This document shows, one piece after another, positions 12,400-59,966 of a stretch of DNA of 64,000 nucleotides. The notes beneath the pieces are model-generated. The model did no database searches and was not told the origin of the DNA. It saw only the letters and a program-made list of their open reading frames with translations. The stretch is taken from NCBI RefSeq assembly GCF_026151205.1, contig NC_087073.1, positions 3,431,001 to 3,495,000 on the forward strand, written 5' to 3'. Position numbers and translations under genes: made by a program. The number at the start of each line of letters is the position of its first letter. Position 1 is the stretch's first letter. This DNA is from Bolinopsis microptera. Taxonomy: Eukaryota > Ctenophora > Tentaculata > Lobata > Bolinopsidae.

Positions 12400-12468
12400 T
12401 TGTAGGTTTACAACCTACCAGGACGCGCGCCGAGTTGGAACAGATATTTTACGAGTATCACCCGTTAA
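12400..12468 (+). mobile_element. GC-hairpin mini-element, family A copy 1
   Basis: Starts TTGTAGG with the perfect hairpin GTAGGTTTACAACCTAC, then CAGGACGCGCGCCGAG, and ends ACGAGTATCACCCGTTAA. It is bounded by exact 8-bp direct repeats GTTTCTGG (12392-12399 and 12469-12476). Compared with copies at 23600 and 59855 it has lost its centre (the GTCGAC and ATATATGG part). No ORF. Confidence 0.8.
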
Positions 12469-12771
12469 GTTTCTGGCCATTAATTGATCCGTCGATGGGT
12501 TACTAGACATGAAAACATGTGTCTTTCATTGTTAATAATTTGATAGATTTTTCAGTACACCCCAATATGACTTATAAAATAAACATTTGGTTAATGTTCC
12601 CTTTAAAATTGTAATGAAGGATGCCTCTAAAAATCCATAATATCTTAACAAGGTCCCTAATAAAGCCCTTTTAATATTTAACACGCTTTCTTCTTGAAAC
12701 ATTCTTTTGTTTTCCTTAATTGACAATCATAACCACCAAATTTAATTGCTATTTTGTAATAGCTTTTATAT

Positions 12772-12916
12772 TTGTAGCACAATGCACTACTGGGCCGCGC
12801 CGCGCATCAAATAATTCTTCTCACAACACACAATTAATTTTTCTCTTCGATAGATTGGCGGGATGCACCACTGGGCCTCACCGAGCTGCGAATTGAGGAT
12901 TGACATCGTGAATCAA
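12772..12916 (+). mobile_element. GC-hairpin mini-element, family C copy 1
   Basis: Starts TTGTAGCACAATGCACTAC, contains GGGCCGCGCCGCGCATC, and ends GATTGACATCGTGAATCAA. It is bounded by exact 9-bp direct repeats CTTTTATAT (12763-12771 and 12917-12925). This is a long form of the family, with a second GATGCACCACTGGGCC block inside. Confidence 0.8.
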
Positions 12917-12989
12917 CTTTTATATGTTAATATTATAATAGACTAACAAGGGCGCGGGCGGCTTTGCAGCACTATGCCTTGATCAGCAG

Positions 12990-13090
12990 TATTTTAAATT
13001 ACCTAGCTTGCTATACTAGTCTATTCACATATATACGAGAAGCTTGGAAACGACGCCGCGCATTGAGATTGGCACGCCTGCCTTGACACA
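12990..13090 (+). repeat. GC-rich repeat, family F copy 1
   Basis: The segment from TACCTAGCTTGCT through GAAGCTTGGAAACGACGCC and CGCGCATTGAG to GGCACGCC matches, with substitutions, the segment at 60146-60232. The copies are far apart, so this is a dispersed repeat. Boundaries are approximate, and no direct repeats were found at the ends. Just downstream (13110-13160) lies a GCGCGCGAAGCGCGCGC hairpin followed by GGCTGGC repeats. Confidence 0.55.
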
Positions 13091-13224
13091 CGCTGCAACC
13101 CCTTTTGATCGCGCGCGAAGCGCGCGCGGCCGGCTGGCTGGCCGGCTGGCCGGCGTGCACGAGAGGTATACAACGTGTAGCAACGCCTGCCAAATCACAA
13201 ATCATATTTTAAAAGGGGAGTATT

Positions 13225-13282
13225 TTGTCATACGTTGTATGACCCGCCGCACACGAGTGCGCGGCTCCCCCTGTATCGTCAG
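13225..13282 (+). mobile_element. GC-hairpin mini-element, family B copy 1 (partial)
   Basis: Matches family B: the hairpin GTCATACGTTGTATGAC, a GCCGC...GCGCGGC stem and CTCCCCCTGTATCGTCAG. The 3' part found in the copies at 33895 and 59312 is missing. It runs straight into a reversed family C piece. Confidence 0.7.
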
Positions 13283-13313
13283 GTTTAATTGACGATGTCA
13301 ATTCATGGCAGCT

Positions 13314-13418
13314 TTGTAGCGCGATGCACTACTGGGTCGCGCGCGCATCAAATAATGCTTCTCGCGAGATGCACCACTGTGCCTCACCGAGCTGCGAAGG
13401 ATTGACATCGTGAATCAA
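13314..13418 (+). mobile_element. GC-hairpin mini-element, family C copy 2, nested
   Basis: Starts TTGTAGCGCGATGCACTAC and ends GGATTGACATCGTGAATCAA. It is bounded by exact 9-bp direct repeats ATGGCAGCT (13305-13313 and 13419-13427). The flanks, if rejoined, form a reversed family C element (left GACGATGTCAATTC, right CGGCGCGGCACAGTAGC), so this copy inserted into a relative. The uninterrupted site can be compared with copy 3 at 32562. Confidence 0.85.
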
Positions 13419-13427
13419 ATGGCAGCT

Positions 13428-13705
13428 CGGCGCGGCACAGTAGCGCATCTCGCCGATCTAGCCAGAAGCCTTATCAAGTGCGCGGCGCGGCACAGTAACG
13501 CATCGCGCTACAAGATAAAGGTGAAACCAGAAACGCTAAAGTGAAACTTGGAGGACTTCGCTGCTTCGACGCGCCGCGCAAACTAGCATTCTTGCTTCGC
13601 ATCGTCGTCGATCGTTGCTTTGCTTCGCAGAGCAACGATCTCGATGGATTGACATTGTCAATCAATAGTGAAACGACCGTGGGGTCACAACGCGATACGT
13701 TGACG
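13428..13705. repeat. Rearranged GC-hairpin repeat fragments
   Basis: Contains reversed family C sequence (GGCGCGGCACAGTAGCGCATC and again GGCGCGGCACAGTAACGCATC), the palindrome GATTGACATTGTCAATC near 13653, and a family B 3' end (GTGAAACGACCGTGGGGTC) near 13667-13690. It looks like several nested and truncated insertions. No gene. Confidence 0.6.
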
Positions 13706-13806
13706 TATGGTAACAGGTAAACAATGCTTTCCTTGGAGAGTTATATGGGCAATAAACCGTTTTGGTCTCGTGACAGGCTAGTAAAACATGATTTGAATTC
13801 GATTGT

Positions 13807-13876
13807 TTAGGGCTAGGGTTAGGGTTGTGGTTAGGGTTATGGATAGCTTCGAGGTTATAGTTAGGATTAGGGTTTC
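13807..13876 (+). repeat. Degenerate interstitial telomere-like repeat
   Basis: About 70 bp of degenerate TTAGGG units: TTTAGGGCTAGGGTTAGGG, then TGTGGTTAGGGTTATGG and GTTAGGATTAGGGTTT. TTAGGG is the usual animal telomere unit. The surrounding sequence is ordinary, so this is an internal site and not a chromosome end. Confidence 0.75.
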
Positions 13877-13894
13877 TGTAAAACCGGTATTTTG

Positions 13895-14007
13895 TTAACG
13901 GCCGGGTGATACTCGTAAAATTTTTGTTTCAAATGTAGGTTTATAACCTACCAGGACGCGCGCCGAGTAATATTTGAAACAAATATTTTACGAGTATCAC
14001 CTGTTAA
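13895..14007 (+). mobile_element. GC-hairpin mini-element, family A copy 2 with inverted arms
   Basis: The family A body (GTAGGTTTATAACCTAC...CACCTGTTAA, 13935-14007) is preceded at 13895-13934 by an inverted copy of its own 3' end (TTAACGGCCGGGTGATACTC, then GTAAAA and TTTGTTTCAAAT). The whole unit is therefore a large imperfect palindrome. No flanking direct repeat was found. Confidence 0.7.
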
Positions 14008-15051
14008 ATTGTCGGCGAGTGTGCTCAGTGCTAAATCACTCTACACTCGATCTTTCAGATTTTTTTAAACAGTTGAAAGTAACTTGAATCGATGTATTTT
14101 CGAACGCTGATTCCGAATCACTGGATCACCCCACATGACATGACATAGGGTTAAAATGCTGCCCTAGTCTCTGTGTTCTGATCGATACCATAATTATTTT
14201 AGAGCATCCCAGCTATCTTTTGTTTGAGTAAGTTATGATAAGTGAAACAGTTTTCTTATTTATTCTGAAATTATAAGTTACAGTTTTAAGAGCAAAAGAA
14301 GATATCAGTAGAAGATAAAGAACGAACCGAATATATTGTTAAAGCTGAAAGTGAAATTGTAGCTTGATGCTGGCATCCAGGATATGTATACAATTTGATA
14401 GAGGCGAGGTTTTCAAAAATTGGAGCAAAGATAATATTATGGGCTTTCTAATAACCCGAACCATATAAACTTGTAAATCATATTCAATTTTTCATAAAAT
14501 CCATTAATCATATCATTGATCGAATTCACCTTGCATCACAAGTTTATTTAAAGAAAAAAAATTAAAGGTTAAGTTTAATGTGCTGAGTCGTACCAATTGA
14601 AATTAATAATTACTAAAATCTAATCGTGAATTGGAGACTGTTGAAAGGAAAGTGACTAAGGCTATCCAAGTACTGCATAGTAACACTAATATAGTAACAT
14701 GCAATTGTATCATCTTTTATCCATCTAATGAGTTACTAAGTTATATCTAGGACTCTTCAGAGCAGCAAAGGAGCGAAATCATCAGAATCAAAGTTAATTG
14801 CTAACACACTACTCGATAAGCACGAGCACTACGTAAGTAAGCGCAATGTGCATACCCGATTATAAACTATAATTCAATACGCATTATATATACATAGTGT
14901 TAAGGTTCTAGTGCAAAAAGAGGTGCTGTATGTACAATTCATTACAGATTATTCACATAGTAATAACTTAATTAAACAAAGTAAAATGACGTGATATGGC
15001 CGGTCGGGTTATTTAAAGTAAAATTTCTAAAATCTACAACTACACGCTTCC
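14008..15051. other. Non-coding stretch, no gene recognised
   Basis: AT-rich sequence between the repeat cluster and the 3' side of the tektin gene. I see no domain or RNA gene. Confidence 0.4.
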
Positions 15052-16080
15052 TTAGTGGTATAATACAATCATGTTCAAGGGTACATCAAATTTGAAGAAA
15101 AATTCAGAAGTTCCTAAATGATAAGGGGGACCTTGTTGTGGCTGACAGTCCCTGCCGAGAACATCGTTGCTGGTCGGAAGCTGGAGAAAAATATGAGTTA
15201 CTGAGTTAGTTCACAAAAAACATCCGAAAATAACATTATTTTGTCGATGCAACTTGTGTTGACACCCTCATGAACTTATAAAGATCATAGTTGATGATTA
15301 GATCACAATCTAAAATAAAAAGCAAACACGTGGTTAGAAAAACTGTATGACACAAAAAACATGCTAAACATTGACCACTTAGCATGCTTGATTGAAGTGG
15401 TAGTAACTTTTTATAGACATCATCAATATGTCATTTTATTTGTGTTTGTGTAGAATCTGGATAGAATGATTCATAAAACAAAATACCGCAGAAGTTTCGT
15501 AAAATCAAAGGGCACCAAACTGTGCTTTTCGTAACAGTTCAAAAATAAAGTATATTAGAGTTCCAGAGCCAAAACAATCCGATCAAAGTTTGTGAAGTTT
15601 GTGATTAAATGGAAGCCCATCGTTTAGTAGTTGTATATATGAGATTGACTATGAGTGAGTTTTTCTGCGCTGTCTGACTCTACCCTGAAATGATCAATCG
15701 ATTAATTAGTTGATCAAATGTGTAACAGCCAGACAGGACAGAAATTTGAATACAAGATTCTTCCAAATGGCATTTAGATTGTCAACTAACTCAATACTCA
15801 TTTCTAATATGGATTTTCCAGTGTTAAAATTTAGGATGTCGCGACAAATTTTTCCAAATCGCCGAAAATGCAGAGTAAAATCATGGAGATGAAATGCCTG
15901 ACTGTATTGTGAGAAATAATGAAGCCACATAAAGGAAGACGACAGCACAGCTCAACTGTATCAAACTTAAGACAGCCCTGCACAGTTTGTGTATCAAGTC
16001 TGTCACAGTTGCACAATTAAAAGTAATGAGGATGCAACACAAGTTAAAACTTAGCATTGATAATTGCAGAGTCATACTCA

Positions 16081-22000: not shown

Positions 22001-22797
22001 AGCGTAAATGTTGCACAAAAATTGTGCCTACCCTCTTGGGAGAGCCACGGTCGGATATAACAAGGACTGAATTGGTATGGATATTAGTTCTTACATCAAT
22101 TTGATGTCATTCATTCAAAATAATTGTAAGGGGTCGTTCACATATTACGTAAGGAGGAGGGGGTTTTCAAATGATTACCTTAGTGAAATTTTGACACAAT
22201 AGCTATGTGTAAAACTGATTACGGAGGTGGGTTAAAAATTGTCCAAAAAGTGATTACGTAATATGTGAACTACCCTTAAAGACATAGATAATCTATAGAA
22301 AAACTTACCTTCAACAGTTGAACCTCTACGTCATCGTGGACCAAGTCAATAGATAATCTGCCTTCTCTGTGCTTGAGACAAGTCGTAGCCACCTCATGAG
22401 GAAGTTGGGTTGCCACGTGAGCCTGTTCAAGCTGTTTCTTGGAGGACATTAGATTAGCAATTTCTTGGTCGGTTTTCTGAAGCTGCCTGTCAACCTCCGT
22501 CTTCCAGTAGGTGATGTTATCGATTCGGTCCTGGAGCTTGACATTAATGTCATTCTGGGTCCTCCTGGTTCTATCAGCTGTCTCGCACCTTAGCCTCTCA
22601 GCTTCTAGACGTAGGTTGTTGGATGATGTCCTCTCAGTACTCGAGGTCAGGTACTGGTTGGCATTTGAACCTGTCCACTCATGAATGGTATACCTGGTAG
22701 CAGGTAATGCAACTCCATTTTGTGGCATACCGTAGCGGGTGTGCTCAGGAGTGTACTTTGTTGAAGGCACAGTGTAATTCATGGCTTGACTAGTCAT
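16081..22797 (-). CDS. Tektin (tektin-3/4 type)
   Basis: Six exons: 22309-22797, 19613-19683, 17820-17963, 17426-17648, 16451-16654 and 16081-16245, together 1296 nt or 431 residues, the usual tektin length. Tektins are coiled-coil filament proteins lining doublet microtubules of cilia and flagella. Visible hallmarks are CLKHREGRLSIDLVHDDVE near residue 140, long heptad-like coiled coil, and the tektin nonapeptide in the variant form RPNIELVRD near residue 348 (canonical RPNVELCRD, so the Cys is replaced by Val). The third and fourth exons carry the IDPKSATPVSYEAFSHDNI segment typical of the tektin-3/4/5 group. Start: the first Met after a possible acceptor (GATAG|GTCAGGT). An alternative last exon at 15052-15180 (-) encodes LPTSNDVLG, which resembles the normal tektin C-terminus better than the annotated WRRHEINF end. 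Confidence 0.9.
22131..22275. mobile_element. MITE with GGGTCGTTCAC ends, inside upstream intron side of tektin
   Basis: Inverted ends GGGTCGTTCACATATTACGT (left) and ACGTAATATGTGAACTACCC (right) enclose about 145 bp without an ORF. The same end motif occurs at 54188-54724 and as partial copies near 59115 and 61240. It sits in the first intron of the tektin gene, about 35 bp downstream of exon 1. Confidence 0.75.
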
Positions 22798-24869
22798 ACC
22801 TGACCTATCAAGGAGTAAAGAAGGTTATAAGTATATTAAAATTTATGTGGTGGTTTCATTTCTGACCGCACGACATTTATTAACATTCCTGACCACGTGC
22901 CGTGGCCGGTAATACGTTTTGAGGTTTAATATTTCGATTCTCCCTGGAATGAAATAGTCAATAGAAGAGGTTATTGGCTGTTGATTCATGAAAGATTGGA
23001 AGTAGCAAACGATGAAAACCTTGCGACTTTTTAACAAATCCAGATACTTGACAAAAGCGCTTTGTTCAATTGCCACCAAAGCTCTATTACAGATTAGTAC
23101 GGCTAGTGATAATTACGAAAAAAGACCATGTGTATGGAGGGATCGATGATCAACTAAAAAATGAGATGCATAATCGAAATGAATGAGATTGAATTAAATG
23201 CTAAGTCAACGATTAACCTACGGCAAATTGACAAGGAGCCACGAATAAACAGATTGCTTTGAAGACCATCACCGTACTCGTTGTGGTAGCACACATGCTC
23301 TGGTAGCTATGGTTATGCGCGTACTATGAAAATCTTTTAATGCGTGCGGAGGAAAAGTATTTCATAATTATTGCGCGGCGCTGTTTATTTTTTTAAATTT
23401 GGGCGAGCGATTTATCATTTAGTGGAAGCGGTACATGGACCATGGTACTATATGATTAATAATACATGGTACCGCTGGGGATAATGTAGTAGTGTGAATG
23501 TTACATATTGTTTCGAATTTTATAAATTTTGCACCAAAAGTTGTTTGTAAACGTAAATAACATATTTCCATGCCAAAACAAAAATACTGCTTGGCGCTTG
23601 TAGGTTTATAACCTACCAGGACGCGCGCCGATTTATAACTCGTCGACGCGGTCCAATATATGGAACAGATATTTTACGAGTATCACCCGTTAAGTATGTT
23701 GTGGTTATATGTTAGTTTTAAACATTAAAAGAATAATGTTTTCAATTAAATGTTTGATCACCCGTACACATTCATTGCACATTGCATTAAATAAAATAGG
23801 TTTTGTATAAACATTTAAAATGTTTTGAAAAAGTTGTTTCTTCAAGACGGTCGTTCACATATAATGTATAAATTTTTTGGCAAATTATATATTTATATTA
23901 CACATTAGTCTGATCGATCCAGACGTCATCACATTTTTACTGGTAAGATGTAATGAAAATATAAAATCTATCGCGTCGTAGTATAAGCTGCATCACATAT
24001 ACAATTACATTTCATGTTTCTGGTCTATCTTGATAGTAGAATGCCAGAATGGACACCTAACATGTGGTATGGCAACGTCGTGGTCAGTGGTAATAGGATT
24101 TGATGCAGCATACTTGAGCATATAATTATGATAAAAACTAATATGGTAATATATTTAATATTTATTCGGCTTTATATTGCTCTTAAACCGTGAGACATCA
24201 CCGTTATATAGTATTACAGTCTACATAATATCATTGATTTATACATATATTCAGCTATCAATATTCTTGTCAAACATTTAGTACATAGTATAGACTCTGC
24301 AGACATAAAATGGTTTGAAAGCGATCATGGAGATCGGAGTGAAGTTGAGCTGGTGATCCTTAACCATATCCCCAGATTTTCCTTTTAAGTTAAGCTGCAA
24401 TTTTCTCCGCTGGGTATTTAGCAATAATCAAACAGAAAATAATGGATATTCCTTCCAGTTTGTTGGGTAAACTTTCTTACTATTAATTGTACAATCGCAT
24501 CAGATCGACTGATAAAGAAATCTACAAAGTTTCAAAATGTTAGTACGTGCGCTGAGAGACATTTTCTGTAGTAAAATGTTGTGCGGATTGTGCGCCTGGA
24601 CAGCAGTTGATGAATTTGGAGCAATTGGATGAAGCGAAAGCTACTACATTTGTGGTGTTTATGCGAATTATCGTCCAAATGTAAATGGTTGAATCAATCG
24701 ACACGAATTCAAAGATTTGAACTTTATTGCTTGGAGAACTTTTAATTGAGAAATAAAACAGGAAGTATCTTAACTAAGGAACGTATTATATATATGTCGA
24801 TCAAGAAATAGCAAATATAAAAAGCCCTTAAAGGCAAACTTAACATTCTCGACAATGTTGCCGAAATGT
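22798..24869. other. Non-coding stretch between tektin and uL16m genes
   Basis: Holds the tektin upstream region and, at about 23519-23600, sequence related to the repeat at 58600-58840 (shared ACCAAAAGTTG and GGCGCTTG motifs). A family A element is inserted at 23598. No further gene was recognised. Confidence 0.45.
23598..23693 (+). mobile_element. GC-hairpin mini-element, family A copy 3
   Basis: Starts with hairpin GTAGGTTTATAACCTAC, has GGACGCGCGCCG, CTCGTCGACG and GTCCAATATATGGAACAG, and ends ACGAGTATCACCCGTTAA. This is a near full-length family member. It is inserted after GGCGCTT of an older repeat. I found no clear flanking duplication. Confidence 0.75.
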
Positions 24870-32561: not shown

Positions 32562-32621
32562 TTGTAGTGAGATGCGCTACTGTGCCGCGCCGAGCTGCGA
32601 TGAACTGACATCGTCAATTAA
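32562..32621 (+). mobile_element. GC-hairpin mini-element, family C copy 3 (60-bp minimal form)
   Basis: Starts TTGTAGTGAGATGCGCTAC (7-bp stem, loop GAT, one mismatch), then TGTGCCGCGCCGAGCTGCG and ends with the hairpin ACTGACATCGTCAATTAA. Bounded by direct repeats ATTCGAAC (exact; 9 bp if one A is counted) at 32554-32561 and 32622-32629. It is the shortest complete family member and shows which part of the longer copies is the core. Confidence 0.82.
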
Positions 32622-33438: not shown

Positions 33439-33518
33439 TTGTAGGTTTACAACCTACCAGGACGCGCGCCGGGTTGGACTCGTCGACGAACAGATATTTT
33501 ACGAGTACCACCCGTTAA
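33439..33518 (+). mobile_element. GC-hairpin mini-element, family A copy 4
   Basis: Starts TTGTAGG with hairpin GTAGGTTTACAACCTAC and ends ACGAGTACCACCCGTTAA. Flanked by exact 8-bp direct repeats GCTTAAAA (33431-33438 and 33519-33526); the match continues into TTG on the right, so the duplication could be read as up to 10 bp. The GGTCCAATATATG centre is deleted. Confidence 0.85.
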
Positions 33519-33564: not shown

Positions 33565-33767
33565 TTGTAGCGCGATGCGTTACTGTGCCGCGCCGCGCAC
33601 TCAATTATGCTTATTCTCGCAACGGCGAGATTTGACCATTGTTAATGATTTGGCCCGGCGCGCGCTACTTCGAAGAAATTTAGACGAGTAACATCCGTCA
33701 ACGGCGAGATCTGCAAGATGCGCTACGGTGCCGCGCCAAGCTGCGATGAATTGACATCATCAATTAA
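33565..33767 (+). mobile_element. GC-hairpin mini-element, family C copy 4, hosting a family D insertion
   Basis: Starts TTGTAGCGCGATGCGTTAC and ends AATTGACATCATCAATTAA. Bounded by exact 9-bp direct repeats CTAAAATGT (33556-33564 and 33768-33776). A family D element (33632-33701) sits inside it with its own 9-bp duplication, so two insertion events can be ordered: C first, then D. Confidence 0.87.
33632..33701 (+). mobile_element. GC-hairpin mini-element, family D copy 1
   Basis: Starts TTGACCATTGTTAATGATT, contains GGCCCGGCGCGCGCTACTTC and ends GACGAGTAACATCCGTCAA, so both ends read TTGAC inward. Exact 9-bp direct repeats CGGCGAGAT lie at 33623-33631 and 33702-33710. Its 3' end resembles the 3' end of family A (ACGAGTATCACCCGTTAA). 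Confidence 0.87.
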
Positions 33768-33894: not shown

Positions 33895-33984
33895 TTGTAT
33901 CACGTTGCGACCCCCACGGTCGTTTCACTATCGTCCTGACGATACAGGGGGAGCCGCGCACTTCGTGCGCGGCGGGTCATACAA
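33895..33984 (-). mobile_element. GC-hairpin mini-element, family B copy 2
   Basis: In plus-strand order it starts TTGTATCACGTTGCGACC and ends GCGGGTCATACAA. The two ends are inverted (TTGTATCAC and TTGTATGAC). Internal stems are CGACC/GGTCG, TATCGTCCTGACGATA and CCGCGCACTTCGTGCGCGG. Exact 8-bp direct repeats CGTGGTTG lie at 33887-33894 and 33985-33992. Confidence 0.85.
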
Positions 33985-34003: not shown

Positions 34004-34096
34004 TTAACGGGTGATACTCGTAAAATGTCTGTTCCATATATTGGACCGTCGACGAGTCCAACTCGGCGCGCGTCCTGGTAGGTTGTAAACCTACAA
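34004..34096 (-). mobile_element. GC-hairpin mini-element, family A copy 5
   Basis: Reverse orientation: starts TTAACGGGTGATACTCG, has TTGGACCGTCGACGAGTCCAA (a 6-bp stem around GTCGAC) and ends at the GTAGGTTGTAAACCTAC hairpin plus AA. It is close to full length. The right flank GTTGCGAG matches the left flank GTTCAGAG at 6 of 8 positions, and an exact GTTGCGAG lies 8 bp further left. Confidence 0.75.
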
Positions 34097-34267
34097 GTTG
34101 CGAGAAGCATTATTGGATGCGCGCAACAAGTGCTTACTGGGCCGCGCTCAGCCTGTCATTCGATCCGCCGAATCTCTGATCTATGATTATGAACATAAAT
34201 GTATTAGCATGAGATCCCCAAGTAAGTCTATTGCTTGCTCCTCTCAGTCGCACGTTTGAAACTTGTC

Positions 34268-34412
34268 ATACGTTGTATGACCCTCCGCGCACGAGTGAAT
34301 TTGTAGCGCGATGCACTACTGGGCCGCGCCGCGCATATTCTTGCAACCACGTAGATCGGCAAAATACACCACTGGGCCTCCCGAGCTAGGAAGGATTCAC
34401 ATCGTGAATCAA
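34268..34412 (+). mobile_element. Family B fragment followed by family C copy 5
   Basis: 34268-34292 is the 5' part of family B (CATACGTTGTATGACCC). A family C element starts at 34301 (TTGTAGCGCGATGCACTAC) and ends at 34412 (GATTCACATCGTGAATCAA). Its flanks share AGTGAAT with a 1-bp offset, so a duplication is likely but eroded. Confidence 0.65.
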
Positions 34413-34423
34413 AAGTGAATCAA

Positions 34424-35810: not shown

Positions 35811-38345
35811 GTTGGTAGGAACTGGGTGAATCACTACAGAGAAACTCTGGAAGAAAAACAACTGAAAATGATGGTTAGTGAACCTTGCTCGATGCCTTTT
35901 AGATTTGGGGATGGACTCTAAGTCATTTCCACAGAAAAGACTATCATCCCTGGGCGAATAGGAAAGACAGATGTTCGGATAGAAGCAAACATTGTTAAGA
36001 AAGAACTGCCGTTGCTTCTCAGTAAAGCATCGTTAAAGAGAGCTGGTGCTGTGTTGGATTTCACAAATGATACAATGAGATTCAGTGGAGATTGTGTTGA
36101 TTTGTTTGAAACTAAATCAAAGCACTATTGCGTTCCTCTTTGTAATAAAAGACGCATGACCATTGGGCCGCCAGATCGAAAGACCCCACATCTGGTGATG
36201 ACAATCAGCGAAGAAGGTTTGTTTGGTACTGACGAAAAGGAGATTAGGAGGAAAGTGGAAAAAATCCACAAACAATTCTCACACCCTCCTAGTGATAAAC
36301 TGAAAACATTGCTGAAAACTGCAGGATTTAAGAGACCAGAATACATGAAAGCAATTGATGAGGTATCCAGCAGTTGTAAAATATGTCTGATGTACAAGAA
36401 ACCCAAGTCAAGACCAGTGGTGGGTCTCCCAAGAGGAAAGGTGTTCAACGAATGTGTTGCAATGGACCTTAAGAATGTTCCTGGCACTCCTAATGTGTAT
36501 ATCTTGCATATGATTGATTCGGTGACAAGATATTCAGCAGCTAGAATAATCTACAATAAGAAGAAAGAGACAATCATCCAAGGGATTTGCTCTGGATGGA
36601 TATCCATCTTTGGAAATCCAAAGAAATTCATGGCTGATAATGGTGGAGAGTTCGCCAATGAGGAGTTTACTGAGATGTGTCAAAGATTCAATGTGGATGT
36701 GCAAAATTCAGCTGCCGAGAGCCCTTGGAGCAATGGGATTGTAGAACGTCATCATAAGATGCTGACAGAGATGATGGTAAAAACGAAGGAAGATTCAAAA
36801 TGCAACTGGGAAGTTGCATTGTGTTGGGCACTAAGTGCGAAAAACTCCATGCAGATGTTTGGTGGGTTTTCTGCAAATCAGTTGACAATGGGCCGTAACC
36901 CTTCACTTCCGAATGTCATCGATGATAGACTGCCAGCTTTAGAAGAAACAACGGTGAGTAAAACCGTGGCTGATAATGTTAATGCAATGCACATGGCAAG
37001 GCAAGCATTTGCAAAGTGTGAAAGTAGCAACAAGATACGTAAAGCTCTGCAAAGCCAAGTTCGGACAAGCAATGATGAGTATTATAGCAATGGTGAAAAG
37101 GTGATGTACAAGAGAAAAGGATCTGCAAAATGGAGTGGGCCTGGTGTTATACTGGGGAGAGACATTACTCATTTATATATTTTAAAGCATGGAAATCAGT
37201 ATTATAAGTGCAGTGCATGTCATCTAACCAGGGATACAACAACAGGATATCCCATTACCTCAGAGTCAGTTGTTGGGCAACCTAACCCGAGTATTGTATC
37301 AAGTTCACCAAAATCCCCATTAGAGACGCAGAGAAATTTCCTAGAGGATCAACCATCTTGCTCTATGGAAACAGCAGTTTCTGTACCGGAAACAGAAACA
37401 CTGCCTCAAAGTGAGACAACAGCAACAATCAGACCTCAGCACAAATCAGGACTTCCTAAAGCAAGAAGTCACGTGGAGTTTCTTCCAAAGTATCCAGAGG
37501 AGGATAGTGAGATCTGGCATAAAGCTTGTATCCATAGCCGTGCAGGAAAATCAACTGGCAGTTACAAAAACTGTGTAAATATTCAACTTGATGGTGAGGA
37601 GAGCATCCAATGTGTGGATTGGTATGAGCTTGCTGTGAATTTGAGAGATGACCTGTCACCAGAAACAGAAGAAGAGGTGTTGCTGTCCAGTGTGAGTATG
37701 TATGACCAAGCAGTTGTAGATGCCAAGCTAGCAGAGCTTGAGAAGTTCAAAGTAAACAAGGTTTACGTGGAAGTTGATGCAAACGAACAGTCCAATGTTG
37801 GTGTTCGTTGGGTAATTACAAAGAAAGCAGAAGGTTCTGTTAAAGCTCGTTTAGTGGCACTTGGTTATCAAGAAAATAGTAGCAATATACGAAAGGACTC
37901 CCCAACATGTAACAGGGACTCTATAAGACTGCTCCTTACAATAGTTGCAACAGAAAGTTGGAAGTTACAACACATCGATGTTCAGGCTGCCTTCTTGCAA
38001 GGCAAGAAGATTTCAAGAGATGTCTTCATTATTCCTCCGAAGGAAGCTGAAACAAGGAAAATCTGGAAACTGAACAAATGTATTTACGGGTTAGTAGACG
38101 GACCTAGAATGTGGTATGTTGAGCTTCGTGATACTCTAGTGAAGTTAAATGTTGTGGTATCGTCATATGATGAGTCATTCATGTTCTGGTATGATGAAGG
38201 AAAACTCGAGGGTATCATTGCTGTGCATGTTGACGATCTGATGTTCAGTGGAAGCAAGAAGTTTGAAAGGGAAGTTATTGGGGAACTGAAGAAGAAGTTT
38301 CGTCTAAGTACGGAGGTCGAAGTTGAATTTGCTTACTGGTCTTGA
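35811..38345 (+). pseudogene. Copia protease end, integrase and reverse transcriptase, broken
   Basis: The protease frame resumes at 35811 (VGRNWVNHY) and meets a stop codon at 35929-35931. From 36012 an open frame of 777 codons holds the integrase zinc domain (H...H...CKIC), the DDE core (AMDLKN, ADNGGEF, NGIVERHH) and reverse transcriptase including LVALGYQE, IDVQAAFLQG and the catalytic box HVDDLMF. The frame ends at 38345 after a one-base shift. Confidence 0.9.
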
Positions 38346-39174
38346 TGTAAAGCAAACACAATCTGGAATTCTGGTATCACAACTGGGGTATGCAGACCAG
38401 ATTTCAAGAATAGAGATCGACCCCACCCGAGTGAATCGAAATACGCTCCCAATCAACGAGAAAGAAAAGCAACAACTGAGAACTGTGTGCGGACAGTTGT
38501 TGTGGGTATCAACACAGACACGGCCAGATGTAGCTTATGCTACATGTTTTGCTAGTAATTCTGTGACTGAAGGGACCATCGCAGATTTGAAAATGGTAAA
38601 CAAAACAGTAAAGTTCTTAGAAAAGAATCCTCTAACACTCAGGTTTAAGAAACTACTGTTGCCTGAGTCAGTCTTAGTGGTTTTCTGTGATGCATCGTAT
38701 GGAAACTTGAAGGATGGTAGCTCTCAGGGAGGCTTCATAATTTTCCTTGTTTCGCTTACAGGAAAATCTTGCCCCATTACATGGCAGAGTAGAAAAATCC
38801 GAAGAGTATGTAAAAGTACTTTAGCAGCGGAGAGTTGGGCAATGATCGAAGCAGTGGAAACATGTGAGTTGATCCAAGCTCAGCTGAGTGAGATCATGTT
38901 ATCTGGAAAACTTGATGTCATTGTAATGACTGATTGCAAGTCTCTACATGATGCTATCCAAACCTCGAAAAATGTTGATGACAAGGGATTGAGGATACCA
39001 ATAGCTTGCCTGAGACAGCAAGTGAACAAAAGTGAAATGACAGTTCGTTGGATTTCAACAAAGAAACAGCTTGCAGATTGTTTGACTAAAGCTGGAGCTC
39101 CAACTTCACTGCTACGGGAGGTATTGTCGTCAGGAGAATTTGACAATGACCTGTTTAGAATTGTATTCCAATAA
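38323..39174 (+). pseudogene. Copia reverse transcriptase end and RNase H, shifted frame
   Basis: Continues the Copia polyprotein in a different frame from the preceding part: TGLDVKQ, then CGQLLWVSTQTRPDV, then RNase H with its acidic residues in FCDASYG, STLAAESWA and MTDCKSLHD. It ends at a normal stop at 39174. The overlap with the upstream frame around 38323-38345 marks the frameshift. Confidence 0.9.
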
Positions 39175-39479
39175 TAAACATTGTATTCAAAGTTTTTAAT
39201 ATTGTGTGTGAAGGATTTTAATAATCTTAATAATTTGAAACTTAAAGAAGTTAAAAGAGTGAATATATTGGTATTTGTGATTTATATAATGTGCTCGTTT
39301 AAAAGAGTGAATATATTGGTATTTGTGATTTATATAATGTACTCGTTTAAAACGATTTTCTATTACATGTTGTGCATGTATCCACAAAGAGGGAAGTTAT
39401 ATTTAGAAAGATTATAGTCTTTCTTGTGACACCTTTATTTTATATTTAATATTTTAAATCTTTCAAAGCCTTTTTAAGA

Positions 39480-40745: not shown

Positions 40746-41016
40746 TTTTCAGGACAAACGTTATTCGAATGGCCAAACACAATTCAATAAAATTCAGCTC
40801 GATCTGACTATCCAAACTATCAAATAAATGCAAAAATGAACCTTCATTTAAAATAAATGAACTCAAATATTTTTCTCGAACCAGTGGTGGTAGTAAGTCA
40901 TACCAGAAAGAATTATTTCAATTGGTCACTCAGTGACTGAGCTATTAAGGCCAACTTATGCCCACTGACTTTTGGCCCACCCTGTATATATGCTAGCTTT
41001 GGTGAGAGGGCTATAG
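40746..41016. other. Non-coding, no gene recognised
   Basis: Short AT-rich stretch between the LINE fragment and the pogo-like element. Confidence 0.35.
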
Positions 41017-41018
41017 TA

Positions 41019-44000
41019 CAGTCAAATCCTTCCTAATTTAAGCCTTTGTCGGACAAAATTCGCAACAAAGCGATTTTAACGGGATATGGTCGGGACAGGT
41101 CACAGGAATCATTCCAGAGAGTTCCCAAAAAAAAGACTTCAGGAAAATCCACAATTACCACTTTTCTACCACCTTTTTACCACTTTGGTTTTCCGCAAAT
41201 AAGTCACGTTCTAAATATCCTAGAAGATTTTAGTTTAAAGCAGTGTGTTTAGAAAACAAAGAAGAACAACTTTCTCTTTAACAACTTTTTCAAAAATAAA
41301 TTATTTAATTAATTAATTAAATAATTAAAAATTTTTCAAATATTTCAAAAATATATTTTGTTAAAAATGTTCACAATTACATTCCACGTATAATGAACTA
41401 ATTTTTATAAAACTTTTGAAAATTTTCACTTTCAATATTTTGGACTTGTAAAATTTTCGAAATTTGTAAAGAATAACCACTATTTACCACTTTTTACCAC
41501 ATTGAATCTCCGCTAATAAAACAACTTCTGAATCTTGTAAAAGGTTCTAGATTGAACCAGTGTGTTCAAAACATAAAAGAGAACATCTTTTTATTTGACA
41601 ACCTTTGGATAAGATAATCAATTGATTAATTAATTAAATATTAATTAAATTTTTAAAAATTTAAAAATATAATTTTTATCAAAAATATTTGCCGTGACGT
41701 GAAACGTAAAATGAATTTACTTGAATAACAGAACATACATCGTCACATAGATTAGAATTAGATAACAGATAAAAAGAGATCCAGATAAATGGAATAAACG
41801 GTAAAATATCCAAATGTGTACGATACTATTATAGCTAATAACTATTAAATATTAACACATCATATCTCTCGACTTAGTATTGTGCTTAACTATATTGTTA
41901 AAATGGTTGTTTAAACAAGACTTAGCAATTTTTCAATCGCTAACTAGAGATCTTATCTCTGATTGTCAGTTTATCGTTTGGAAGTGTAAGCTTCAGCTTT
42001 TACTTTATGTTGACTTCTCTTCGTAAAAAAGTTAAATATGCTAAAAATCGAGGACTGAAATCACACCAAATAGTTGACATTTTGAAAACAGAAGAACACA
42101 TCGTGTGCCTGATACTCTACGCGTGCAGATTCTATGTAAGTAGCTGTCAACTAATATACAATAATAGTAATATGTTTTTACCGTTTTACTTTTCAGTTTT
42201 ATGTCAACCGAGACTCGAGAGCGCAACTAGAGGCATTCTCAACCAATACTATGTTTTAATTTACCAGGCAAATGAGGAGTTAATTCCGGTGAATAGGAGT
42301 TAAACCCCAGGTACTATTTTAACTATTTATCTTTTAAGTAAGTACACTAACTTTTAAACTATGCCCAGCAAGTTTGAAACGGATGGTTACAGTCCTATTC
42401 ATTATCCTGAGGCCTCTCATACTCTGTATAAATAAACAAACCATCGTAACACAGGTTGGATCAACATTCAACAACCCCTGGTCACTGAACGAAATTAAAC
42501 GGCAGTACAACGGCCTGACTGATTCTGCTCAGAGTGACGTCTATTGTGTGTTATTGCAGACAGTGATCATAGACCAGTTCCAAAGATTCATATCGGCCAA
42601 TGAAGATGAGTCCGTTGTAACTGAGTCAGAACCATCTTTAGTTCACGAACACAGTTTAAACAAATATCCATTCTGTAACGTAGAGATCGCACCAAATGAT
42701 AAATCCTCAAATCGGATTACAGACAGGGTAAGTTATTGTGTGGGGGAGGGGGGAGGTGGTATAGTACACATACGTTAGGCTCTTACTAATTCGCTCGCCC
42801 AAAAATTTCTCCGACGTGACTTTTATTATTATTATTTCTCCGTAGCTTAGTGCACTAGATTCCCACTATCGGAATCGTTCTGAATAGCCGATCCTTACCA
42901 ACTCCGTGGATCCGACTGGTGGTGTCTGATCCAGTGAATGAGTGGCATAGAAATCGTGCAGAAAGCCCAATTACGGTATCCTAACATCCTGTCACGTGAT
43001 TATCGATTGGGTAATCATTGATAACCCAATCAGTTTCGCTAACGAGATAAACAAATTGCTTGATAACTTCGTCATTTTCAATCCGTTTCGCGCCATCTTT
43101 TCAGATCATATTCCGAATGTAATGGCCTATTGCAATATGTTATAGTGCATTTTACAGCATGTTCGCAAACACGAGTACATGCTGATTATAAGACTCAACG
43201 TATGTGTATTGACTCATGGCACCCCCACTCCCCCTAAACGTAACTTGGAGGATATTTTGATTTCTAAGTGTTATTTAACGACCACGTTGCTGCTATAATA
43301 CCGATTTGAAACATTACTTATACAGGGGGCAGCACTTATCGTGTTTACCATCAGCTGCAGGCGTGGGATGAGAATGACCTTATAGATCCGATAAGCTGGG
43401 GAATGGGGATGGAAGATGAACAATGGGGTGCATGTTCCAGTGACCACTCTTATGAGTACAGCTCCGAAAAAGCTCATTCAAAACATCAGTTGCAACTGTT
43501 TTATGTTTAAAGTCAGGTTGTGGCAATGCTTGTTCATGCAGAAAAGCAGGAATACATTGTGGATCAACCTGCCTCAAATGTCAGCACAATTGCTTATTGC
43601 ACCAATGTGCCAGCTGAGGACTCATAAGTAAGACTCTTATCTAGTATATATGGTTATATAAAGTACTGCTTCGATTTTCCGATTAGTTTAATGAAAAGTT
43701 GTCAATTATTCGTGTTATGTAATTTTAAAATATTTTGATCGAAAATAATTATTATAATTTTTGAATATTTGTTTAATAATCGATTAACTAATTAATTAAT
43801 TATTTAATCCAAAGGTTATCAAATAAAAAGATGTTCTCTTTTATGTTTTGAAAACACTGGTTCAATCTAGAACCTTCTACGACATTCAGAAGTCGTTTTA
43901 TCAGCGGAGATTCGAAGTGGTAAAAAGTGGTAAATAGTGGTTATTCTTTACAAATTTCGAAAATTTTACAAGTCCAAAATATTGAAAGTGAAAATTTTCA

Positions 44001-44389
44001 AAAGTTTTATAAAAATTAGTTCATTATACGTGGAATGTAATTGTGAACATTTTTATCAAAATATATTTTTGAAATATTTGAAAATTTTTTAATTATTTAA
44101 TTAATTAATTAAATAATTTATTTTTGAAAAAGTTGTTAAAGAGAAAGTTGTTCTTCTTTGTTTTCTAAACACACTGCTTTAAACTAAAATCTTCTAGGAT
44201 ATTCAGAACGTGACTTATTTGCGGAATACCAAAGTGGTAAAAAGGTGGTAGAAAAGTGGTAATTGTGGATTTTCCTGAAGTCTTTTTTTTTGGGAACTCT
44301 CTGGAATGATTCCTGGGACCTGTCCCGAAAATATCCCGTTAAAATCGCTTTGTTGCGAATTTTGTCCGACAAAAAGACGTATTTGACTG
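41019..44389. mobile_element. pogo/Tigger-like element with ~650-bp inverted repeats
   Basis: The ends are CAGTCAAAT (41019) and ATTTGACTG (44389), each bordered by TA (41017-41018 and 44390-44391), the Tc1/mariner/pogo target duplication. Inverted repeats of about 650 bp (41019 to about 41690, and about 43740-44389) are highly similar throughout, including the GTCGGACAAAATTCGCAACA block found in pogo/Tigger ends. The 2-kb interior (41.7-43.7 kb) has no transposase signature; it holds exon-like open frames described separately. It is therefore non-autonomous, or a captured-sequence carrier. Confidence 0.8.
42007..43631 (+). other. Exon-like open frames inside the pogo-like element
   Basis: Three pieces look like exons. 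One at 42007-42135 (MLTSLRKKVKYAKNRGLKSH) ends at a GTAAGT donor with a matching TTTTCAG acceptor at about 42197. A second, 42374-42727, starts with a hydrophobic VTVLFIILRPLILC segment and ends AGG|GTAAGT. A third frame, 43327-43509 (STYRVYHQLQAWDENDL), follows a TTATACAG acceptor but its phase does not join the second, and it hits a stop, with open frame (VVAMLVHAEKQEYIVDQ) after it. I do not recognise the protein. Likely a captured or decayed gene fragment. Confidence 0.4.
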
Positions 44390-44391
44390 TA

Positions 44392-45167: not shown

Positions 45168-56601
<11,434 letters not shown>

Positions 56602-58552
56602 GTCGCAACTCTAACTTATTTTAGGTGTCAATACGAGCATTGCCTCGAGCCAATCAAAGAACAATTTGAGATATGTAGCATCTAGATATCCAGTGTTCTC
56701 CAAATATGTCAGAGATGAACAGAGAAGAAGTATGGAAGATGATAACAAGCGAAAAGACTTAAAATTAGTTCCGAACCCGTTATATCGTCACAGAGAGATA
56801 CATTACTGTTTCTAGGATAGCTATTCGAAAAATGCCAGTCAGTATTTTTAATATATTTCGTAAACTAGGGCTATATAGTGTCCTAAAATTCTATGAAAAC
56901 GTGCTTCCGACAGAATTAGATTGTGAATTTTAACTTGATACTCGTCATGCAATGTACGAGATTTTTATCTCCAATTTCAACGACGAAAGTCGCTTGATTC
57001 GAGTGATATCCACGGACCCGTTACTCAAATCCCCAAACCACATGCAGTTAAAATTGTGATCGGAAAGGCACGTTTCTACAGAATTTAGTGGGGTTATACC
57101 TCGTCAGCCAGATTTAACAGTCAGAAAATAACTCTCTTGTGTTTTTGTTTTCATTTCAACTGCCAGGTATAGTTTCATTCTATACATCTGCTTTGATATT
57201 AGGTTTTGTAAAATTTAGGTCAAACAAAGTTGACAGTATGGATAGGAGAAGGTTTGGTTATTTTGGGACAAAATTTTACTTGACACCTGTGCCGGTTGAT
57301 TTTGGTGATTTAATTTATTTGTTGTTAATCGCGTATGCTTGTTTAGTTTGAATTTAGTTTAGTGTTATAGATAGTAAAAGGCACTGCTTATTTTTTACAT
57401 ACGATCTTGTTAATCGAAATTCAATAATAATATTTTGAAGCTGTCCAAAACACAGTCGGAGATTTTTAAAAAAGTTCCCTACCTTGATATTCTATTCATA
57501 TAGTGCTAACTTTCTGGTTAAAAGCGTCAATCAGCATGACCTAACTCAATTATCCTAATTTAGTTTTCAAATTAAATTTCTTATTATTATCTGATAGTAG
57601 GTATGAAAAGTAACACATGTGGCCACAATCCACACCGCATAAGATCCCTGAATGGACTCTTATTAGAGTTTTGAGTTTTGAGTTTCAGTGTCCAGAGTCT
57701 GTGTAGGACTCTGAGCCATCTTTGCTGCTGAAATTGGAAATGTTTCCGGCACATGGTCTTTGAAGACCATGCAAGATGCTAAGACCTGATCCTCTACTTT
57801 TAACCTCTAGGTCGATCATTAGTTAATCGATTTTCTTTGATTAACTCCCAAACTGCCATTTAATTGTTGGCGTATTTGCTAATGTAAGTGGCCAAATTTT
57901 CAAATAAAAAATCATGAATGTTATGGAGTTAGCTCATGCTGGATATTATAGGTAAAAATTCAGTCTTACAGGATTACCGCAGATAAGTTTGAGGTTAAGA
58001 ATTGAGGCGTATGATCATATAGAACATGTTATAAACTGTCATTGGTTTCATTTCATGTTCAACGTTTGAGCATAATTTTGATGAGTGTTTTTCTTGTTAA
58101 TTTCAAAATCACCCTTCTTACAAATATTCAATTTCAATAAGCTGCAGGATATTATAATTATATGGCAGGCCAATCCCGATTTCCCTAGGCTATATCAATA
58201 TTACATTAACTTTTTCCCGACGCGGTAGAGTAGAGTGGGAGAAAAAGGAGGCGATGGATAAATTGTCAAGGGTTGGTCGAGAGAAATGATGGTGCTATCT
58301 TGGAGATGACCAATGTAAGAGCATCCGTTGGGACAAATCGAATACATGCAGCATATTTGCTGTATTTTAATATATCGTCCTGCGCCATGTGCGGCTTGTT
58401 TCATGTTTTTATCTAGCTTTATGCAAATTTTGCCGATGTGCCAACGAAATTAACTAACTCAAAAAACATGGTTTTTGGCTTATTTAATTAGACCAAAAAT
58501 CAGTTTTTGCAATTTTACCCGGGGAAACTCAGTAGTCTATGTGCTATGTAAT
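56602..58552. other. Downstream of the SOD-repeat gene, no gene recognised
   Basis: AT-rich sequence including the probable 3' untranslated region. A perfect hairpin CATGGTCTTTGAAGACCATG lies near 57752. Open frames such as 57139-57351 match nothing I know. Confidence 0.4.
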
Positions 58553-58663
58553 AAGCGCCATGCCATGAGTTGACACCAAATTTTTTCCTCTGATTTCGAT
58601 AAATTTGGTACCAAAAGTTGTCTAAAAATGTGAATAAAATAATTCCGCCGTGTAGGCGTGTAG

Positions 58664-58780
58664 TTGACCATTGTTAATAGTCTGGATCTGGCCCGGCGCG
58701 CGCTACTTCGTAGCACTTGCCATCGAGAAGAAAGCGGCGCGCGCTACTTCGAAGAAATTTAGACGAGTAACATCCGTCAA
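58664..58780 (+). mobile_element. GC-hairpin mini-element, family D copy 2
   Basis: Starts TTGACCATTGTTAATAG and ends GACGAGTAACATCCGTCAA, with the GGCGCGCGCTACTTCG block present twice, so it is longer than copy 1. Flanks share CGTGTAG (58657-58663 and 58782-58788), a near-exact 7-8-bp duplication. Confidence 0.8.
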
Positions 58781-59039
58781 CCGTGTAGCAGCACTAGCAA
58801 TTTTTGCTATAAATTGAAAATGCTGCAAGGCGCTTGTTTGCCGCGCGTGCGTTTTTCGCGCAAATTTTTAGTTTTTGCCCTATAATTTTCACAGTTTCAG
58901 TTATTATGAAATAATTGTTATGGCATCGTAATCAGCTCATCGAGACGAAACTTTTTTGTTTTTATAGTACTAATATCATAAGATTTAACGGAACATTATT
59001 TTCAAATTTTAAAAACCTGAACACAAGGGTTCCGCCTTG

Positions 59040-59105
59040 TAGCGCGATGCGTTATTTGGCCTCGCCGTGTGCATCCAATAATGCTTAACTCGCGCGCAAC
59101 CTTCG
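59040..59105 (+). mobile_element. GC-hairpin mini-element, family C copy 6 (partial)
   Basis: Begins TTGTAGCGCGATGCGTTAT and continues through GCATCCAATAATGCTTAACT, matching the 5' half of the long family C copies. The 3' half is absent and no flanking duplication is seen. Confidence 0.65.
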
Positions 59106-59311
59106 TTAGGGCATAGGGGTCGTTTAAATATTACGTAATCAGCCGAGGGGGGGGGGGTTTTGGTCGTTGATAACGTATTATTCAACCCTTTGACACGAAT
59201 TACTTTGTAAGTTTAGATCCCTGTATTTTGAACGAGCACTTAAATGTAACTGTGCTGAACTTGTTCGACACTAAATGTATTATTGTCTATTTTAAATAAC
59301 TATACATTTTA

Positions 59312-59413
59312 TTGTCATACGTTGTATGACCCGCCGCGCACGAAGTGCGCGGCTCCCCCTGTATCGTCAGAACGATAAAGTGAAACGACCGTGGGGGTCG
59401 CAACGTGATACAA
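59312..59413 (+). mobile_element. GC-hairpin mini-element, family B copy 4
   Basis: Starts TTGTCATACG with hairpin GTCATACGTTGTATGAC (7-bp stem, 3-nt loop), then CCGCGCACGAAGTGCGCGG, CTCCCCCTGTATCGTCAG, and ends GTCGCAACGTGATACAA. Exact direct repeats ACATTTTA flank it (59304-59311 and 59414-59421), extendable to 10 bp because TT follows on both sides. It is the most complete family B copy. Confidence 0.87.
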
Positions 59414-59854
59414 ACATTTTATTAACAATGAATTTAAGTTGGTTTTATTTGTACTCTTAAAAGTAGCTGGACGTCCGGGGAAAGGGGTGGTTTTGAAAAT
59501 TCGTTGGCATACGTTGCATGCCACTTTTCGCGCGCGCCGCCGAAGATATTTGTGATACGCAATTAACGTACATGTATCAAAAAATTCGGAAAAAAATTTT
59601 CCCGGACAGGGGGGTGGTCTGAAAATCTGCGATTTTGGCGGACGTCCTATGTAGATCATAGATGGCCCCTTATCGTGCTACACGGTGAATTTGCATTATT
59701 CACACTTAGACTCTAAGTTAGAGGCAATGCAACTTTTGGTACCAAATTTATCAAAATCAGAGACAAAAAATTCTATGCCAACTCATGGCGCTTATTTGTT
59801 ATTACATATTCAATATTATATATATAAATAATATAATAAACTCTGACTACAGTA

Positions 59855-59966
59855 TTGTAGGTTTACAACCTACCAGGACGCGCGCCGAGTTGGACTCGTC
59901 GACGGTCCTAATATATGGAAAGGTCCTAATACATGGAACAAATATTCTACGAGTATCACCCGTTAA
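59855..59966 (+). mobile_element. GC-hairpin mini-element, family A copy 6
   Basis: Starts TTGTAGG with hairpin GTAGGTTTACAACCTAC, contains GAGTTGGACTCGTCGACGG and two copies of a GGTCCTAATAYATGGAA unit, and ends ACGAGTATCACCCGTTAA. It is the longest family A copy because of the internal duplication. No flanking duplication was found. Confidence 0.78.

What the first reader, a model, noticed from the sequence alone, without database searches (positions are those of the whole stretch)
12400..59966. A system of tiny GC-rich hairpin insertions with 8-9-bp target duplications
Seen directly: at least four sequence families (A, B, C, D; about 60-200 bp) with no ORF share a plan. They begin TTG and end CAA or TAA; A, B and C carry a 7-bp stem with 3-nt loop at the 5' end (A GTAGGTT/TAC, B GTCATAC/GTT, C GTAGCGC/GAT, the last with a mismatch or wobble) and most have a second hairpin at the 3' end. 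Nine copies are bordered by exact direct repeats: A1 GTTTCTGG, A4 GCTTAAAA, B2 CGTGGTTG, B4 ACATTTTA, C1 CTTTTATAT, C2 ATGGCAGCT, C3 ATTCGAAC, C4 CTAAAATGT, D1 CGGCGAGAT. Families A and B give 8 bp, C and D 9 bp. Inference: different non-autonomous elements mobilised by one or two related enzymes that recognise TTG plus hairpin ends. Known groups with 8-9-bp duplications (hAT, P, Mutator, Merlin) have longer inverted ends, so none fits obviously.
Basis: partly seen in the sequence, partly recalled or inferred. Interest (0 to 1): 0.9.

Follow-up and report, generated by a model that had tools for sequence, protein, structure and literature searches.

The report
Tiny jumping DNA with palindromic ends
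An animal-like genome carries thousands of very short, gene-less jumping DNA pieces of several sequence families that share one design (a 20-letter, often palindromic box at each end and an 8- or 9-letter copy of the target), while the enzyme that moves them was not found.

Summary
It lies in a 264.65-Mb animal-like assembly (a ctenophore is my guess). Among 122 end pairs of eight families, 45 have an exact 8-bp and 21 an exact 9-bp flank repeat and none another length of 5-12 bp; re-paired flanks give about 0.6. Insertions prefer Y three bases outside one side of the repeat and R at the mirror position. Ends are TT plus a box of about 18 bp, better conserved than the next 20 bp in 9 of 10 end types tested. 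Ten of 18 end boxes are more palindromic than their shuffles at p<0.05, but conserved mismatches in several boxes favour sequence-specific binding of a dyad site over a read hairpin. One shared box consensus occurs 5,145 times, its reversed control 57 times. These are non-autonomous DNA transposons without ordinary inverted repeats, in part recently active, moved in trans by an unidentified, probably DDE, transposase. Phantom-type MULE and Merlin-type genes exist here; two complete MULEs have other ends, and six further transposase loci show no such boxes. New variant of a known kind.

The parts
12400..12468 (+). family A copy, 69 bp, TSD GTTTCTGG on both sides
12772..12916 (+). family C copy, 145 bp, TSD CTTTTATAT (9 bp)
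13083..13183 (+). family G copy, 101 bp, TSD CGCCTGCC
13225..13282 (+). 5' part of a family B copy; B sequence reappears at 13665-13698, so the copy looks interrupted by nested C and F elements
   Evidence: interruption inferred
13285..13513 (-). outer family C copy that carries a nested C copy
13314..13418 (+). family C copy, 105 bp, TSD ATGGCAGCT, nested
13548..13665 (+). family F copy; flank repeat AGTGAAAC displaced by 1 bp at the 3' side
13934..14007 (+). family A copy with degraded tip, no flank repeat
23598..23693 (+). family A copy, 96 bp, no flank repeat
32562..32621 (+). family C copy, 60 bp, TSD ATTCGAAC (9 bp AATTCGAAC is equally possible)
33439..33518 (+). family A copy, 80 bp, TSD GCTTAAAA
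33565..33767 (+). family C copy with nested D, TSD CTAAAATGT
33632..33701 (+). family D copy, 70 bp, TSD CGGCGAGAT, inside the C copy
33895..33984 (-). family B copy with half of its 5' box missing, TSD CGTGGTTG
34004..34096 (-). family A copy; flank repeat CTCGCAAC displaced 7 bp from the 3' box
34263..34294 (+). family B 5' fragment
34301..34412 (+). family C copy, 112 bp, no exact flank repeat
58664..58780 (+). family D copy, 117 bp; flank repeat CCGTGTAG displaced 8 bp at the 5' side
59312..59413 (+). family B copy, 102 bp, TSD ACATTTTA; identical over full length to two copies on C4 and one on C9
59504..59580 (+). family E copy, 77 bp, TSD AAAATTCG
59855..59966 (+). family A copy, 112 bp, with a repeated interior, no flank repeat

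Best explanation
These are non-autonomous cut-and-paste DNA transposons, mostly 60-150 bp (MITE-like in size and number, but without an extended terminal inverted repeat). Each family has its own left and its own right end: TT at the tip followed by a box of about 18 bp that is often an imperfect palindrome (7-3-7, 6-3-6 or 5-4-5). A DDE transposase supplied in trans most likely binds each box as double-stranded, dyad-symmetric DNA (a dimer or two binding domains), cuts at the TT tip, and joins the ends to the target with a stagger of 8 or 9 bp, preferring a target with Y and R three bases outside the stagger. Shown here: 8/9-bp duplications only, the mirrored target preference, conserved end boxes, pairing of left with right boxes, recent amplification of family B, clustering and nesting. 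Inferred: cut-and-paste (no excision site was seen), DDE chemistry, dimer binding, supply in trans. The enzyme was not found; my ranking is a MULE of the Phantom type about 0.4, Merlin type about 0.2, another or unknown type about 0.4.
For: Duplications only of 8 (45) or 9 (21) bp among 122 end pairs, none of 5-7 or 10-12; 56 pairs have none. Target: pyrimidine at -2 in 52 of 66 and purine at the mirror position in 53 of 66 (counts; binomial against one half 1.4e-6 and 3.6e-7; the position was picked after seeing 15-16 tabulated ones). When one end is defined by the flank repeat alone, the expected box lies there in 84 of 97 cases (families A, B, C, D, H; window and L002-L040 without L012), and positions 1-20 are better conserved than 21-40 in 9 of 10 end types, means 0.89-1.00 against 0.67-0.92; D3, four copies, is the exception. 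75 of 76 TSD-bounded box pairs join the 5' and 3' box of one family, none joins two like boxes; the exception is two insertions sharing a site (not cleared of duplicate loci). Recent activity: four identical 102-bp B copies on C2, C4 (two) and C9, 185 exact 55-mers. Abundance: 23 hits, fragments included, in 200 kb; consensus box 5,145 against 57 for the reversed control. Possible enzymes: 88 MULE-domain and 58 IS1595/Merlin-domain matches, two complete FLYWCH-MULE elements with 8-bp duplications.
Against: No long element with these ends was found. In eight fetched transposase loci (five Merlin, three MULE) no box came within 4 mismatches, only three single 5-mismatch hits; two MULEs are complete and have other ends. 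Of the boxes with another inner flank I read all 21 B5 places (20 stretches), two of 39 A5 places (L019, L069) and set out to read none of the 63 B3 places. Three of the 20 B5 stretches (L043, L057, L058) show no right end within about 650 bp, so longer elements there are not excluded. Of 131 box pairs 54 have no exact repeat within 12 bp and 13 have it displaced by 1-10 bp (about one by chance, my estimate). E3, F5, G5 are not palindromic. Purine at the first base of 8-bp repeats (37 of 45) has no matching mirror excess (pyrimidine at base 8 in 24 of 45).
Confidence: 0.85

Rival explanations
1. The hairpin is read as a structure: the enzyme recognises a TT-tipped cruciform or single-strand hairpin regardless of its sequence, so one enzyme serves all families.
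For: Unlike box sequences at the two ends of one element share TT and, in most families, palindromicity (Fisher combined p 1.4e-11 over 18 ends, which are not all independent). Box variants with the same ACGTTGT core show paired outer arms, GTCA/TGAC, GTCT/AGAC and GCCT/AGGC, the last two in one listed row each (about 100 of 5,145 rows listed), and F3 boxes carry either G-C (8 of 21) or A-T (11 of 21) at the outermost pair.
Against: Unpaired or wobble positions are conserved in several boxes: A.C in 19 of 19 D3 and 33 of 33 B3, G.T in 36 of 36 A3 and 26 of 28 H5; in C5, D5 and H3 both paired and unpaired states occur. Eight of 18 ends do not reach p 0.05, three of them not remotely. Half of the 5' box is missing in one copy with a perfect TSD (33895-33984), though later slippage between TTG repeats could explain it.
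Confidence: 0.12
2. They are the short derivatives of a Phantom-type MULE of this genome.
For: 8- and 9-bp duplications in one family with a 10-bp imperfect terminal palindrome are reported for Muta1; asymmetric 7-bp outer motifs in Tm1. FLYWCH-MULE elements with 8-bp duplications exist here.
Against: The two complete MULEs begin GG or GA with subterminal tandem repeats and hold none of the boxes. A third locus (L066) could not be resolved. Only 3 of 88 matches were looked at.
Confidence: 0.4
3. They are derivatives of a Merlin (IS1595-like) transposon.
For: 58 IS1595-domain matches, several groups with identical scores and open frames of 318-337 aa, which suggests recent activity; 8-9-bp duplications are typical of Merlin (recalled).
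Against: Five loci with 0.7-0.9 kb on each side of the domain hold no box pair and no clear ends. Merlin ends begin GG (recalled).
Confidence: 0.2
4. The repeats and hairpins are chance or low-complexity artefacts.
For: Flanks are often AT-rich and 56 of 122 end pairs have no exact repeat.
Against: Re-paired and shuffled controls, target preference, 185 exact 55-mers, 5,145 against 57.
Confidence: 0.01

Closest known systems
Muta1 / Phantom-clade Mutator-like elements (PMC5225508 and PMC6446971, passages seen)
   Same: 8- or 9-bp duplications within one family; a terminal imperfect palindrome; hundreds of non-autonomous copies with variable interior; no apparent target sequence preference reported.
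   Different: Muta1 has 145-bp inverted repeats with tandem subterminal repeats and a 10-bp terminal palindrome; the elements here are mostly 60-150 bp, have unlike ends and a 14-17-bp palindrome. No MULE with their ends was found.
Tm1 Mutator/Foldback elements of root-knot nematodes (PMC3169594, passages seen)
   Same: Asymmetric short outer motifs, 8-10-bp (mostly 9) duplications, MITE-like members, Phantom-type transposase in the family.
   Different: Long composite inverted repeats inside the outer motifs; none here.
MITEs in general
   Same: Short, no ORF, thousands of copies, fixed duplication length, moved in trans (inferred).
   Different: No terminal inverted repeat beyond TT and, in some families, a loosely shared core; left and right boxes differ; boxes are often palindromes.
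Double-hairpin elements and GC clusters of fungal mitochondria (recalled)
   Same: Tiny, GC-rich, hairpin-bearing mobile pieces.
   Different: Those are mitochondrial; here they lie on a 23-Mb contig and have 8-9-bp duplications.

Membership tests
MITE / non-autonomous DNA transposon | short, no coding capacity, many copies | tested here: met
   TSD-bearing copies 59-372 bp, the longest with nested or expanded interiors; 23 hits per 200 kb sampled; 185 exact 55-mers of B
MITE / non-autonomous DNA transposon | fixed-length target duplication | tested here: met
   66 of 122 end pairs, only 8 or 9 bp
MITE / non-autonomous DNA transposon | terminal inverted repeats | tested here: not met
   5' and 3' boxes differ in all nine families; TT and, in B and G, a partial core are shared
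MULE, Phantom subclass | 8-11-bp target duplication (8 or 9 bp in Muta1) | tested here: met
   ranges
MULE, Phantom subclass | ends shared with a FLYWCH-MULE transposase element of the same genome | tested here: not met
   L067 and L068 are complete elements with other ends; 3 of 88 matches fetched, one unresolved
Merlin | 8-9-bp duplication (recalled) | tested here: met
Merlin | ends shared with an IS1595-type element of the genome | tested here: inconclusive
   5 of 58 matches fetched, short flanks, no boxes
hAT | 8-bp duplication with T at 2 and A at 7 (recalled) | tested here: not met
   21 of 66 duplications are 9 bp; T at 2 in 16 of 45 and A at 7 in 13 of 45; the genome has hAT, 150 matches scored of 365 candidates; no hAT ends were read
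P element | P-type transposase in the genome | tested here: inconclusive
   PF21787 0 matches, controls silent as well
KDZ / Zisupton | KDZ transposase in the genome | tested here: inconclusive
   PF18758 0 matches, controls silent
Helitron or SINE | no duplication (Helitron) or variable-length duplication and A-rich tail (SINE), recalled | tested here: not met
   fixed 8/9 bp, no tail in the family consensuses

The most novel reading that the evidence does not exclude
A single transposase mobilises many families with unrelated end sequences because it recognises a TT-tipped terminal dyad or cruciform rather than a sequence; the palindrome is the signal, its letters are free to drift in pairs.
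Probability: 0.1. Interest if true: 0.85.

Novelty: new variant of a known kind. Interest (0 to 1): 0.52.

Why it matters
It shows a large population (order of 10,000 copies by a rough extrapolation from 200 kb) of very small DNA transposons whose ends are dyad boxes instead of inverted repeats. MITE finders that look for inverted repeats between the two ends would probably miss them (inference, not tested). Identifying the enzyme would show how a eukaryotic transposase handles unlike left and right ends, and whether box symmetry or box sequence is read. Young, identical copies make an assay feasible.

Tried and rejected
1. RNA genes: no tRNA or tmRNA, no Rfam family at gathering score. Folding of eight elements as single-stranded DNA: B (z -4.6) and F (z -5.8) fold much better than shuffles, the other six do not (z -1.6 to +1.6); so a structured strand is not a general property.

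2. Organelle genome with double-hairpin elements: rejected, a 23-Mb contig with SPT5, LDL-receptor repeats and a copia-like element.

3. A longer element with the same ends in the data held: among the 60 best TSD-bounded box pairs listed (to 14 kb) no convincing long one; the two longest in the window (8,109 and 4,971 bp) have a non-box second end.

4. 'Box with another interior' searches: B5 21 places, B3 63, A5 39. All 21 B5 places were read in 20 stretches of 0.6-0.9 kb: short copies, nested insertions, decayed copies, and three stretches without a right end. Of the A5 places one newly fetched is an A copy with a tandem-expanded interior and one was already held (L019).

5. Compensatory changes within families as proof of hairpin function: few. 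I do not use C3 there, because C3 and F3 differ at just the pair in question and the sorting of copies between them makes the count circular.

6. A sharp fall of conservation behind position 20 of B is an artefact: ten of the 15 B copies come from loci chosen by an exact 20-mer with altered letters behind it. The end-independent check replaces it and shows a milder difference.

7. Insertion hot spot just inside the box: three B5 boxes (L042, L045, L053) and 13 of 63 listed B3 boxes (TTGTA 4, TTGTC 7, TTACT 1, TTGAT 1) continue with what looks like another element's tip at position 20. The patterns favour that position, so I do not claim a hot spot. Nesting: 9 of 66 TSD-bearing copies lie inside another copy; four of the nine come from loci chosen for an altered B copy.

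8. Literature: listings showed no title or abstract start describing these elements; passages were seen of PMC5225508, PMC6446971, PMC3169594, PMC4079207, PMC7789003 and PMC11797021. The original Phantom paper is not held, nor are most subscription papers.


Full report
Setting. The window is G000:C2:3431001-3495000 of a 264,652,675-base assembly with 232 contigs. The thirteen contigs C1-C13 (lengths) sum to about 258 Mb. The window holds SPT5, LDL-receptor repeats and a copia-like element. Size and number match the ctenophore Bolinopsis microptera (265 Mb, 13 chromosomes, table in PMC11797021, passages seen); this identification is an inference and nothing below depends on it.

Checking the observation. 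I defined eight families (A-H) by their end sequences and looked for pairs of ends 35-450 bp apart in the window and in loci L002-L060 (L001 overlaps the window and was removed; identical flank pairs counted once). Of 122 pairs, 45 have an exact 8-bp and 21 an exact 9-bp flank repeat, 56 none; no pair has a longest repeat of 5-7 or 10-12 bp. Re-pairing the flanks 200 times gives 0.565 with 8-9 bp per 122. By family (8 bp / 9 bp / none): A 17/5/11, B 15/0/10, C 1/7/10, D 2/5/6, E 2/0/2, F 1/1/6, G 2/0/0, H 5/3/11. A search without any condition on the end letters recovered the main families and a ninth, I, with four TSD-bearing copies, all 9 bp.

Target sites. In the 45 sites with 8-bp repeats the base three positions outside the repeat on the left (-2) is C or T in 34, and its mirror (+11) is A or G in 36. 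In the 21 sites with 9-bp repeats the figures are 18 and 17 (mirror +12). Together 52 and 53 of 66, binomial 1.4e-6 and 3.6e-7; the position was chosen after tabulating 16 (8 bp) and 15 (9 bp) columns. The preference moves with the repeat length, so it is anchored to the two cut points, as expected for a symmetric transposase complex (inference). A second bias, purine at the first base of 8-bp repeats (37 of 45), is not mirrored (pyrimidine at base 8 in 24 of 45) and stays unexplained.

Ends. To avoid circularity I took copies in the window and L002-L040 (without L012) in which one end was found by its box and the other by the flank repeat alone, allowing a shift of one base (the 8/9-bp ambiguity). 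In families A, B, C, D and H the expected box sits at the repeat-defined end in 84 of 97 cases within 4 mismatches (A5 21 of 21, A3 21 of 23, B5 5 of 6, B3 5 of 7, C5 6 of 10, C3 5 of 5, D5 3 of 5, D3 4 of 4, H5 7 of 7, H3 7 of 9). Among those within 8 mismatches, positions 1-20 are better conserved than 21-40 in 9 of the 10 end types. Of 18 end boxes, 10 are more palindromic than shuffles of themselves at p below 0.05 (A5, A3, B5, C5, C3, E5, F3, H3, I5, I3), five are weak (B3, D5, D3, G3, H5; p 0.06-0.18) and three not palindromic (E3, F5, G5); combined p 1.4e-11, with the caution that some boxes are related. Stems are 7-3-7 in most, 6-3-6 in A3 and H, 5-4-5 in I. Over 14 box types with 3-41 copies, unpaired or wobble positions are fixed or nearly so in A3, B3, D3 and H5, while C5, D5 and H3 show both states. 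This favours a sequence-specific, dyad-symmetric binding site over recognition of a hairpin. The pattern TTGNNNNACGWTGTNNNNCC, which fits B5, B3, C3 and F3, is found 2,573 + 2,572 times in the genome, the reversed pattern 27 + 30 times. Among 76 TSD-bounded pairs of classified boxes (duplicate loci not removed), 75 pair the 5' with the 3' box of the same family and none pairs two like boxes; the exception is an A copy inserted at the edge of an F copy. Left and right ends are therefore distinct, though descent from single master copies would give the same result.

Irregular copies. Allowing altered tips, 131 box pairs gave 64 exact placements, 54 without repeat and 13 with the repeat displaced by 1-10 bp. 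Whether these show flexible cutting or later change is open.

Abundance, age, distribution. Twenty 10-kb stretches at even steps on C1 and C5 hold 23 hits (1,476 bp, 0.74%), in 8 of 20 stretches with up to 8 in one, so copies cluster; the window is richer, 32 hits or 3.7%, fragments included in both. Extrapolated naively this is about 30,000 copies. Four B copies are identical over 102 bp on three chromosomes (41 rows listed of 1,312 candidates) and a 55-base stretch of B occurs exactly 185 times, so B moved recently. Nine of 66 TSD-bearing copies sit inside another copy, four of them in loci selected for an altered B copy.

The enzyme. MULE domain: 88 matches; IS1595/Merlin: 58; hAT dimerisation domain: 150 scored of 365 candidates; KDZ and P-type: none, with silent controls. 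Two complete MULEs were resolved: L067, 2,051 bp, duplication GTTATTTG, and L068, 2,468 bp, duplication GCATCAGA. Both encode FLYWCH plus MULE proteins (467 and 487 aa), have unlike outer motifs and tandem subterminal repeats, and start GG or GA. That resembles the published Phantom/Tm1 architecture, but not the ends of the tiny elements. A third MULE locus and five Merlin loci gave no ends. A final scan of all eight loci found no family box within 4 mismatches. Hence the class of enzyme rests on duplication length and analogy only.

Verdict. Real, abundant, in part recently active non-autonomous DNA transposons with an unusual end design; mechanism inferred as cut-and-paste by a trans-acting DDE transposase that binds dyad boxes. 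New variant of a known kind; partner unknown.

Noticed in passing
window 8227-8775 and 50027-50947: Two clusters of related ~300-bp repeats (CACTAGAAAACCCGTGGTCACAGGGAGG...), two or more tandem units each, about 41 kb apart.
   Followed up: no
window 36012-39174: Copia-like retroelement frames (RVT_2 and rve domains in the first frame); a 48-bp tandem pair follows at 39251-39346.
   Followed up: no
window 41173-44142: AT-rich repeats around 41.2-41.7 kb and 43.8-44.1 kb that by eye read as an inverted pair about 3 kb apart; possibly the long inverted ends of another transposon.
   Followed up: no
window 4442-5629 (minus): LDL-receptor class A protein with three tandem units at 363-bp spacing, 92-94% alike over 300 nt.
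   Followed up: no
L067 993-3043 and L068 595-3062: Complete Phantom-like MULEs with open FLYWCH-MULE frames, 8-bp duplications and tandem subterminal repeats.
   Followed up: partly
L043: A B 5' box runs straight into a long CCCTGA tandem array.
   Followed up: no
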